From Flavobacteriaceae bacterium (GTDB lineage: Bacteria; Bacteroidota; Bacteroidia; Flavobacteriales; Flavobacteriaceae), in NCBI GenBank assembly GCA_009693635.1, contig SHWW01000006.1, positions 1 through 48,017 of the forward strand: a stretch of 48,017 nucleotides of DNA, read 5' to 3'. The translations under genes were made by a program, and so were the position numbers. Numbering within the stretch: position 1 is the stretch's first letter; every line of letters starts with the position of its first letter. Below are positions 10,595 to 36,481 of the stretch, in pieces. The notes below the pieces were generated by a model. It worked only from the letters and a program-made list of their open reading frames with translations. It had not been told where the DNA came from and did no database searches.

Positions 10595-10948
10595 TTACTC
10601 TACTCCATCATACCGCTCTGGTACTTGTGGGTCGTATAAAGGACATTTAAATTCTTCGAGTTCACTTACTAAAATATCCATCGTTTTTCCTTCAGTTCCG
10701 TAGCAATCAATTTTTATGCTTTGAGAAGTGCTACGAACGTGAAATGCACCTGGACCATTATTGTTTTTCCAACTGTTTTCATCCATTCGTTCCCATTTTG
10801 AGAACAAAGTATTAATTCGGTTTAGAATTACGGATGTTGGTAAATCTTCTAAACCTTCAACTAATTCTTCTTCTACGATGGACTCATACACTAAATGGTG
10901 ATTGAGATAAATTCCGTCTTGGTAAATCCAAAAAACTAATTCGTACAT
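10595..10948 (-). CDS. Hypothetical protein
   Basis: 117 aa acidic ORF, same strand as and 23 bp from 10134-10571; no family recognised. Confidence 0.72.
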   Translation of the reverse strand: MYELVFWIYQDGIYLNHHLVYESIVEEELVEGLEDLPTSVILNRINTLFSKWERMDENSWKNNNGPGAFHVRSTSQSIKIDCYGTEGKTMDILVSELEEFKCPLYDPQVPERYDGVE

Positions 10949-10956
10949 AACTGTGT

Positions 10957-11047
10957 TTTAGCCCCGATAGCAGTGGAAATCCTTTTCTTTTTTTCTTTAA
11001 AAAAGAAAAGATTGTAACGAATAGCGGGAATAGCTCCTAAAAAAAGC
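10957..11047. repeat. Intergenic element copy 1 (hairpin between direct half-repeats)
   Basis: ttttagccCCGATAGCAGTGGAAATCC, 12 bp perfect hairpin cttttctttttt(10982-10993)/aaaaaagaaaag(10999-11010), then attgtaaCGAATAGCGGGAATAGCTCCtaaaaaaa; diverged copy at 23616-23693. Confidence 0.7.
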
Positions 11048-11051
11048 TAAA

Positions 11052-12230
11052 TTAATATTCAAAAACACCATACTCACTGGTGATTGTCAATTTTTTTGTA
11101 TCTGATGCTGCTACTCTACCCACAATTTGAGCATCAACATTAAACGATTTTGAGATGGTAATAATATCATTGGCGATGACTTCAGGAACATACAATTCCA
11201 TACGGTGACCGCAATTGAAAACCTGGTACATTTCCTTCCAATCCGTTTTAGATTGTTCTTGAATCAATTGGAATAATGGTGGTACTGGAAACAAATTGTC
11301 TTTTATTATATGAACGTTATCTACAAAATGTAATATTTTGGTTTGTGCACCACCACTGCAATGCACCATTCCATGAATAGCTTCTGAATTGTATTTTTCT
11401 AAAATTTTCTTGATAATTGGGGCGTAGGTTCTTGTTGGAGATAGCACCAATTTTCCTGCGTCAATTGGAGAATTTTTCACGGCATCTGTCAACTTTACTT
11501 TTCCAGAATAAACTAAATCTTGGGGAACTGCCGCGTCAAAACTTTCAGGATATTTCTGAGCCAAATAGTTGTCAAAAACATCGTGTCGTGCCGACGTTAA
11601 TCCGTTGCTTCCCATTCCGCCATTGTAGCCTTTTTCGTAACTTGATTGACCAAAAGAAGCCAAACCAACAATTACATCTCCCGCTTTTATATTGGCATTA
11701 TCAATCACATCGCTACGTTTCATTCTGGCGGTAACCGTTGAATCTACTATGATGGTACGCACAATATCGCCTACGTCTGCGGTTTCTCCGCCTGAGGAAT
11801 GAATGTTTACGCCGTAGGTTTTCAATTCTGCAATTAATTCTTCCGTTCCGTTGATAATTGCCGAAATCACTTCTGACGTGATTAGGTTTTTATTTCTTCC
11901 AATTGTTGAAGATAATAAAATATTATCGGTAGCTCCAACACACAATAAATCGTCAATATTCATTATTAATGCGTCTTGTGCAATGCCCTTCCAAACAGAA
12001 ACATCGCCTGTTTCTTTCCAATACATATACGCCAACGAAGATTTTGTACCTGCTCCGTCAGCGTGCATTATGAGACAATATTCTTCGTCTTGGGTTAAAT
12101 AATCGGGAATTATTTTACAAAAAGCTTGTGGAAACAAACCCTTGTCAATATTTTTTATAGCGTTGTGAACGTCTTCTTTGGATGCTGAAACACCGCGAAG
12201 TGCATATCGTTTACTTGTATCTGAACTCAT
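11052..12230 (-). CDS. purM: Phosphoribosylformylglycinamidine cyclo-ligase (AIR synthase)
   Basis: YALRGVSASKEDVHNAIK; HADGAGTKSSLAYMYWKETGD; CVGATDNILLSSTIGRNK; GGETADVGDIVRT. Start moved to ATG 12230 (MSSDTSKRYALRGVS). Confidence 0.85.
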   Translation of the reverse strand: MSSDTSKRYALRGVSASKEDVHNAIKNIDKGLFPQAFCKIIPDYLTQDEEYCLIMHADGAGTKSSLAYMYWKETGDVSVWKGIAQDALIMNIDDLLCVGATDNILLSSTIGRNKNLITSEVISAIINGTEELIAELKTYGVNIHSSGGETADVGDIVRTIIVDSTVTARMKRSDVIDNANIKAGDVIVGLASFGQSSYEKGYNGGMGSNGLTSARHDVFDNYLAQKYPESFDAAVPQDLVYSGKVKLTDAVKNSPIDAGKLVLSPTRTYAPIIKKILEKYNSEAIHGMVHCSGGAQTKILHFVDNVHIIKDNLFPVPPLFQLIQEQSKTDWKEMYQVFNCGHRMELYVPEVIANDIITISKSFNVDAQIVGRVAASDTKKLTITSEYGVFEY

Positions 12231-12308
12231 TTTTTTTGTGTAGTTGTTTGCAAAGATAATCGGAATTTTTGGATGTGAAATTTTCAATTGTTGGAAATAT
12301 AGAAATAT

Positions 12309-23553: not shown

Positions 23554-23615
23554 TAAGCTGAAAATTTATTTAAATGCTTAATTTTAAATAAACAAAAGGA
23601 ATTTAGTCTAGAGTC

Positions 23616-23693
23616 TAAGCCCTGATGAAATTGAAAATCCTTAGCTTTTAGTGAGAATTAAATTGGAAAGCGAAAAATTAGGAGCAAAAAAAA
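23616..23693. repeat. Intergenic element copy 2 (diverged, hairpin lost)
   Basis: taAGCCCtGATgaaattGaAAATCCTTagctttt...ttaaattGgAAAGCGaaAaatTAGGAGCaAAAAAAA; aligns end to end with 10957-11047 by eye. Confidence 0.45.
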
Positions 23694-36406: not shown

Positions 36407-36481
36407 GGTGGCTGACCGGGTTCGAACCGGCGACCCTCGGCACCACAAACCAATACTCTAACCAGCTGAGCTACAACCACC
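36407..36481 (-). tRNA. tRNA-His (anticodon GTG)
   Basis: Minus strand GGTGGTTGTAGCTCAGCTGGTTAGAGTATTGGTTTGTGGTGCCGAGGGTCGCCGGTTCGAACCCGGTCAGCCACC; anticodon loop TTGTGGT; G-1 opposite discriminator C73; 3' CCA not encoded. Confidence 0.95.

What the first reader, a model, noticed from the sequence alone, without database searches (positions are those of the whole stretch)
10957..11047. Intergenic hairpin element with direct half-repeats; candidate recurring Flavobacterium element
The 103 bp gap between purM and the 10595-10948 gene holds AGCCCCGATAGCAGTGGAAATCC, a perfect 12 bp hairpin (cttttctttttt-tcttt-aaaaaagaaaag), then GATTGTAACGAATAGCGGGAATAGCTCC. The flanks resemble each other as direct half-repeats (CGA-TAGCAGTGGAAAT--CC versus CGAATAGC-GGGAATAGCTCC), so this is not just a terminator. 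It contains no meaningful ORF. From memory only, similar AGCCCCGATAGCAG...GCGGGAATAGCTCC strings recur between genes in other Flavobacterium genomes, with the flanks conserved and the hairpin sequence varying. That pattern would suggest a structured RNA, a MITE-like or REP-like element, or a protein-binding site.
Basis: partly seen in the sequence, partly recalled or inferred. Interest (0 to 1): 0.62.

Follow-up and report, generated by a model that had tools for sequence, protein, structure and literature searches.

The report
Known Flavobacterium hairpin repeat (Flavo-1)
The hairpin between purM and its neighbour is a copy of Flavo-1, a DNA/RNA stem-loop of unknown role described in 2010 and repeated tens of times in many Flavobacterium genomes; new here is evidence that a good part of the copies stay at the same core-gene boundaries, in the same orientation, across the genus while their hairpin tips are exchanged.

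Summary
The "direct half-repeats" are the two sides of one interrupted stem and covary as complements. The copy at 23616 is an eroded Flavo-1; its orthologue in G010 is intact.

Function is unsolved. Evidence here: 35 copies in this draft genome, 0 to at least 88 in congeners; no true hit in phage or plasmid records. Of 109 copies examined, 32 fall in 11 groups that share both flanking genes between species, every group in one orientation. Copies sit between transcription units with promoters reading away; in 20 of 46 cases with an antisense 3' neighbour the 3' end lies under 10 nt from its stop codon. Arms show strong compensatory change, whereas apical hairpins are exchanged among copies within a genome. 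Copies in this lineage are decaying. A REP-transposase link, target-site duplications, replication-strand bias and canonical terminator anatomy were tested and not found.

Best reading: an ancient REP-like structured repeat, kept as a folded stem-loop at transcription-unit boundaries and recognised by an unidentified factor.

The parts
10956..11039 (+). Flavo-1 element (Rfam RF01705), intact copy, antisense to the purM transcript
   Evidence: cmscan 84.1 bits, E 2.6e-17; model built here 90.9 bits, 10958-11039
10958..10981 (+). 5' arm TTAGCCCCGATAGCAGTGGAAATC: basal pairs 10963-10966 and 10968-10969, middle pairs 10973-10974, upper pairs 10978-10981
   Evidence: alignment A1 and pair counts
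10970..10977 (+). 5' sides of the two 3x3 internal loops: GCA (10970-10972) and GGA (10975-10977), opposite GAA (11019-11021) and GTA (11014-11016); GNA/GNA type
   Evidence: sequence; G and A nearly invariant across copies for loop 1, loop 2 differs in a minority subtype
10982..11010 (+). apical hairpin, 12-bp perfect stem with TCTTT loop; the part that varies between copies and is exchanged
   Evidence: sequence; apical comparisons
11010..11029 (+). 3' arm GATTGTAACGAATAGCGGGA
   Evidence: alignment A1 and pair counts
11030..11046 (+). 3' tail ATAGCTCCTAAAAAAAG (family consensus GCTCC[TA]AAAAAA)
   Evidence: flank consensus over 84 copies
11052..12287 (-). purM (AIR synthase-related domains); its stop codon lies about 12 nt from the element's 3' end
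   Evidence: Pfam AIRS and AIRS_C; distance
10595..10948 (-). 117-aa conserved protein of unknown function, downstream of purM; its start codon lies about 9 nt from the element's 5' end
   Evidence: ORF list; no Pfam family; found next to purM in all 30 relatives read
23614..23687 (+). eroded Flavo-1 copy between a 943-aa ORF and a LOG-type (lysine decarboxylase-like) gene; orthologue of the intact copy in G010 (L210)
   Evidence: 22.2 bits, Rfam 20.9 bits; 3.5-kb syntenic alignment at 76.8%

Best explanation
Shown: the element is a member of Rfam Flavo-1, an interspersed chromosomal repeat of Flavobacteriales whose plus strand can fold into a long stem with conserved basal and middle helices, two internal loops of GNA/GNA type and a variable apical hairpin. 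Shown: many copies are old residents of core-gene boundaries, kept in place and orientation across species, with compensatory change in the helices and sharing of apical hairpins between copies of one genome. Inferred: the folded plus strand, as RNA or single-stranded DNA, is recognised by an unidentified protein, and this keeps the arms near consensus; where that factor or need is lost (this lineage, and congeners with few or no copies) the copies erode. Inferred: copies lying antisense just after a stop codon, as at purM, are carried in that mRNA and help form or protect a 3' end. In short, it works like a REP element at transcription-unit boundaries without belonging to a known REP/RAYT system.
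For: Identity. Copy number 35 in this genome, 0 to 88 (high counts are lower bounds) in 24 congeners, and present in three genomes of other families. Compensatory change: 104 cells with both sides changed against 26.6 in shuffles, 95.4% paired against 37-51% when slid; one pair shows all four Watson-Crick types. Plus-strand fold: G.T 46 against A.C 13 after leaving out one misaligned pair; plus strand more stable in 91 of 109 copies. Fixed sites: 53 of 109 loci share at least one orthologous neighbour with a locus of another genome; 32 of them form 11 groups sharing both neighbours, each in one orientation; at purM 12 of 30 genomes carry it in the same orientation, on both sides of the tree's midpoint root. 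Tip exchange: apical hairpins at orthologous sites are no more alike than random ones (0.610 against 0.590), while GC-rich tips are shared within a genome 14 times against 2.7 expected. Position: element 3' end within 10 nt of an antisense stop in 20 of 46 against 1 of 41 for the 5' end and a sense stop; promoter motifs read away from the element, 28 against 9 and 25 against 10 expected, not into it from its 5' side, 12 against 16; no terminator-like site in the 70 nt beyond the element in 24 tight antisense cases, against 53 of 256 ordinary gene ends. Decay in this lineage: of 11 arm pairs that change pairing state against a close orthologue, 9 are broken or G.T here and Watson-Crick in the relative, 2 the reverse. 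The commonest neighbour families are core metabolic.
Against: No binding protein is identified. Transcription was not measured; a published F. psychrophilum transcriptome found Flavo-1 hits indistinctly sense or antisense to transcribed regions and many outside them (PMC9723704), which argues against one RNA role. The 3'-end role rests on position and small numbers, there is no U-run after the stem in either direction, and at purM itself the next start codon is only about 9 nt away, so that copy is probably inside an operon. The plus-strand excess shares ancestry across copies, so the counts are not independent. The low G.T share (about 2% of cells) seems low for an RNA helix. Concerted replacement could keep the arms near consensus without a cellular function. 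Gene calls near the copies are heuristic, and loci outside this genome were chosen by score.
Confidence: 0.45

Rival explanations
1. Selfish or formerly mobile non-autonomous repeat (REP- or MITE-like) moved in trans by a transposase that recognises the folded strand; no host function, and arms look conserved because of spread and conversion.
For: High and very variable copy number among congeners; genome-specific apical subfamilies; imperfect palindrome between genes; two of 17 sites examined look absent in a close relative.
Against: No Y1 transposase in copy-rich G004 and G011, and no Flavo-1 within 1.5 kb of 30 Y1 loci; no target-site duplication; many loci are old shared sites in one orientation; no true hit in phage or plasmid records.
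Confidence: 0.3
2. A trans-acting small RNA or a cis-regulatory leader RNA, as Rfam's type 'Gene; sRNA' implies.
For: Covariation and a conserved fold; plus-strand excess of G.T over A.C.
Against: Many copies in both orientations to genes; no promoter motif enriched on its 5' side driving into it; published transcriptome gives no consistent transcription.
Confidence: 0.1
3. An intrinsic transcription terminator, possibly acting in both directions.
For: It often sits where a terminator is expected, right after antisense stop codons, and no other terminator-like site follows there.
Against: A run of T precedes and a run of A follows the stem on both strands at purM, the reverse of the canonical order; only 2 of 24 tight copies contain a terminator-like site; many copies lie between divergent genes (27 of 109); when the antisense gene end is further away a separate terminator is often present (5 of 12).
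Confidence: 0.1

Closest known systems
Flavo-1 RNA, Rfam RF01705 (Weinberg et al. 2010, PMC2864571)
   Same: Sequence and structure; the window copy matches the whole model at twice the gathering score.
   Different: Nothing for this copy. Not found in the passages read: fixed orthologous sites, tip exchange, and variants with an extra side arm or a GGGCGTGA/TCACGCCC basal stem.
REP elements (GTAG and CGTC families; PMC3733652) and their RAYT transposases
   Same: Short interspersed palindromic repeats between genes with variable copy number; that paper reports that CGTC REPs lack a dedicated transposase too.
   Different: Longer (about 80 nt), with conserved internal loops; no GTAG or CGTC tag noticed at the ends; not found beside Y1 transposase genes.
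Atypical structures flanking subclass 2.6 TnpA_REP genes of Bacteroidetes (PMC6006769)
   Same: Same phylum; repeated secondary structures.
   Different: Flavo-1 was not found within 1.5 kb of 30 Y1-domain genes, which include YxHNNP-type ones.
Integron attC sites (from general knowledge, not tested)
   Same: Folded single strand with a conserved base and a variable terminal structure.
   Different: Flavo-1 copies are dispersed single sites, not arrays of cassettes.

Membership tests
Flavo-1 (Rfam RF01705) | Covariance-model score above the curated gathering score of 42 bits | tested here: met
   84.1 bits over model positions 1-76 of 76
Flavo-1 (Rfam RF01705) | Conserved helices with compensatory change | tested here: met
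   on a MAFFT alignment of 37 copies, structure taken from Rfam
Flavo-1 (Rfam RF01705) | Found in Bacteroidetes | tested here: met
   Found in congeners and three other genomes of the order; none of 14 control genomes
REP/RAYT system | A cognate Y1 (RAYT) transposase gene in genomes with many copies | tested here: not met
   G004 (at least 88 copies) and G011 (44) have no PF01797 match; G022 has eight matches and 15 copies
REP/RAYT system | Copies flanking the transposase gene | tested here: not met
   No convincing match within 1.5 kb of 30 Y1 genes (best 17 bits)
MITE or other transposon-derived repeat | Target-site duplication at the ends | tested here: not met
   No k-mer of 2-10 shared by both flanks clearly beyond shuffled expectation, 84 copies
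MITE or other transposon-derived repeat | Clean empty site in a close relative | tested here: inconclusive
   Two candidate absences between close relatives, neither clean
Intrinsic terminator | GC-rich stem followed directly by a run of T | tested here: not met
   T-run precedes and A-run follows on both strands; 2 of 24 tight copies score as terminator-like
Small RNA gene | Own promoter and discrete transcript | tested here: inconclusive
   No enrichment of the Bacteroidetes promoter motif upstream; transcripts could not be measured

The most novel reading that the evidence does not exclude
Flavo-1 is a host-maintained element whose apical hairpin is an exchangeable cassette: an unidentified, lineage-specific factor recognises the folded plus strand (through the GNA/GNA loops) at fixed transcription-unit boundaries, and hairpin tips, including pieces of other palindromic repeats, are copied between sites while the arms and the site stay put. 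Loss of the factor lets the whole family erode, as in this genome.
Probability: 0.2. Interest if true: 0.7.

Novelty: already known. Interest (0 to 1): 0.38.

Why it matters
Flavo-1 has been in Rfam as an RNA of unknown function since 2010. The comparisons here turn it into something testable: many copies are old, fixed in place and orientation at core-gene boundaries, and differ in a tip that is shared among copies of a genome. Lineages with full, decayed and no copies (G004, this genome, G018 and G020) give a natural contrast for finding the factor that maintains it.

Tried and rejected
Replication-strand bias: G010 suggested it (p 0.027 for high-scoring copies), three other complete genomes did not (p 0.36 or more), so it was dropped. 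RAYT/REP partner: no support. Target-site duplication: none. Horizontal spread on phages or plasmids: one 24-base simple-sequence match in phages, none in plasmids, no exact match to a degenerate arm pattern in IMG/VR; these collections may hold few Flavobacterium records, so this is weak. Link to rRNA operons, suggested by three copies near contig ends of G006: no rRNA match in those loci. Mobile genes next to copies: Pfam of 120 neighbours shows no transposase among the 25 commonest families. One pair (columns 27/85 of A1) was misaligned for the shorter subtype and left out of the G.T/A.C count.

Full report
What is there. A scan against Rfam gives one strong match in the gap: RF01705, Flavo-1, 10956-11035 on the plus strand, 84.1 bits, E 2.6e-17, the whole model. 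The only other gathering-level match in the window is a tRNA. The element is therefore a copy of a family described by Weinberg and colleagues in 2010 (PMC2864571).

Structure. In 37 copies aligned by MAFFT, the Rfam-derived helices are 95.4% paired, against 37-51% when partners are slid by one to three columns; 104 cells change on both sides against 26.6 in shuffles. One basal pair occurs as C-G, T-A, A-T and G-C. The helices are separated by two 3x3 internal loops, GNA opposite GNA, with the first G and last A nearly invariant in loop 1; a shorter subtype has GGC opposite ATA in loop 2. Among non-Watson-Crick cells G.T outnumbers A.C 46 to 13 once a misaligned pair is set aside, and the plus strand is the more stable in 91 of 109 copies with RNA parameters and 100 of 107 with DNA parameters. 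Both point to the plus strand as the folded one, with the caution that copies share ancestry. The alignments made by the covariance model (A2, A3) lean towards its structure; A1 does not.

Numbers and spread. This draft genome (1.81 Mb, 87 contigs, 79% complete) has 35 matches, 21 above the gathering score. Of 24 congeners two have none, one has one and others up to at least 88 (89 candidates scored per genome, so high counts are lower bounds). Three genomes of other families in the order carry it. Plasmid records gave no match, phage records one 24-base simple-sequence match, and IMG/VR no exact match to a degenerate arm pattern.

Fixed sites. Flanking genes of 109 copies from about 25 genomes were compared: 53 loci share at least one orthologous neighbour with a locus in another genome; 32 of these form 11 groups (up to five genomes) that share both neighbours, and in every such group the element has one orientation. 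Some loci that share only one neighbour differ in arrangement. At purM, 12 of 30 genomes have it between the same two genes in the same orientation; on a purM tree it lies on both sides of the midpoint root and the pattern needs about seven changes, at least three forced by well-supported branches. One genome (L139) keeps only a decayed 3' half. The simplest reading is old presence with repeated loss. The window's second site, 23614-23687, is a decayed copy: the syntenic region of G010 (3.5 kb at 76.8%) has an intact 88-bit element at the same place.

Tips. Orthologous copies often have unrelated apical hairpins. Between this genome and close relatives at about 90-95% identity, three of about a dozen comparable copies have a different tip on conserved arms, and one gained a 46-bp side hairpin in one relative. 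Over the set of 109 copies, apical similarity at orthologous sites (0.610) is like that of random copies (0.590), whereas GC-rich near-identical tips occur 14 times within genomes against 2.7 expected (p below 0.001). Tips thus seem to spread between copies of one genome. Three own-genome tips (L035, L036, L050) contain GAGGCACGA, the tip of a separate palindromic repeat seen elsewhere in these loci; that the latter is a CGTC-type REP is my recollection, not tested.

Position. In the element's frame the neighbours are (-,-) 38, (+,+) 36, divergent 27 and convergent 6 (including four copies that overlap a called ORF). The 3' end lies within 10 nt of an antisense stop codon in 20 of 46 cases; the 5' end lies that close to a sense stop in 1 of 41. 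The TAnnTTTG promoter motif is enriched in both flanks reading away from the element and not in the 5' flank reading into it. In 24 copies tight against an antisense stop no terminator-like site follows within 70 nt, against 53 of 256 ordinary gene ends; the element itself scores as terminator-like in 2 of 24. At purM the element is about 12 nt from the stop and about 9 nt from the next start codon, so here it probably lies inside a transcript.

Decay in this lineage. Own-genome copies score low apart from the purM one and one other. Against close orthologues, differences occur at 5.9% of paired arm sites, 12.8% of arm loop sites and 8.5% of flank sites; of the arm pairs that change state, 9 are broken or G.T here and Watson-Crick in the relative, 2 the reverse. 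The counts are small.

What it is not. Y1 (RAYT) transposases are absent from some copy-rich genomes and no Flavo-1 lies within 1.5 kb of 30 Y1 genes. There is no target-site duplication, no consistent replication-strand bias in four complete genomes, no transposase among the commonest neighbour families, and no canonical terminator order. A transcriptome study reports Flavo-1 hits indistinctly sense or antisense to transcribed regions (PMC9723704).

Conclusion. Membership in Flavo-1 is settled. The mechanism is inferred: an old REP-like structured repeat kept at transcription-unit boundaries, folded from the plus strand and recognised by an unidentified factor, with exchange of its tip; a formerly mobile selfish repeat is the main rival and is not excluded.

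Noticed in passing
L033, L041, L049, L052, L056, L081, L084 (own genome and relatives): Extended Flavo-1 variants in which the arm sits in a larger structure with a GGGCGTGA/TCACGCCC-type basal stem and a side hairpin (TTTGGGCGTG..GGTCGGGC..CCCTCACGC); they score only about 29-61 bits with Rfam or the model built here.
   Followed up: partly
L046, L053, L057 and L160 (orthologue of L036 in G014): Variant with a nested side hairpin AGCCCTGATTAC[TTCACT..AGTGAA]CTTCGTTTGTAG; at the L036 site it is present in one relative and absent in this genome and another relative.
   Followed up: partly
L122, L135, L136, L138, L140-L144, L147, L148 (purM gap without the element): Genomes lacking the element have A/T-rich degenerate repeats of the type ATTGAAAGATTAAA in the same gap.
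   Followed up: no
L204, L215, L225, L233, L237: A separate palindromic repeat, TCATTGCGAGGAACGAAGCAATC, near several Flavo-1 copies; its GAGGMACGA tip also appears inside three own-genome Flavo-1 apical hairpins (L035, L036, L050).
   Followed up: partly
G010 and G291 matches of about 143 bp (e.g. G010:C1:449419-449562): A set of Flavo-1 matches with unusually long apical hairpins of nearly equal length at several places.
   Followed up: no
window 36407-36480, minus strand: A tRNA gene, the only other Rfam match in the window.
   Followed up: no
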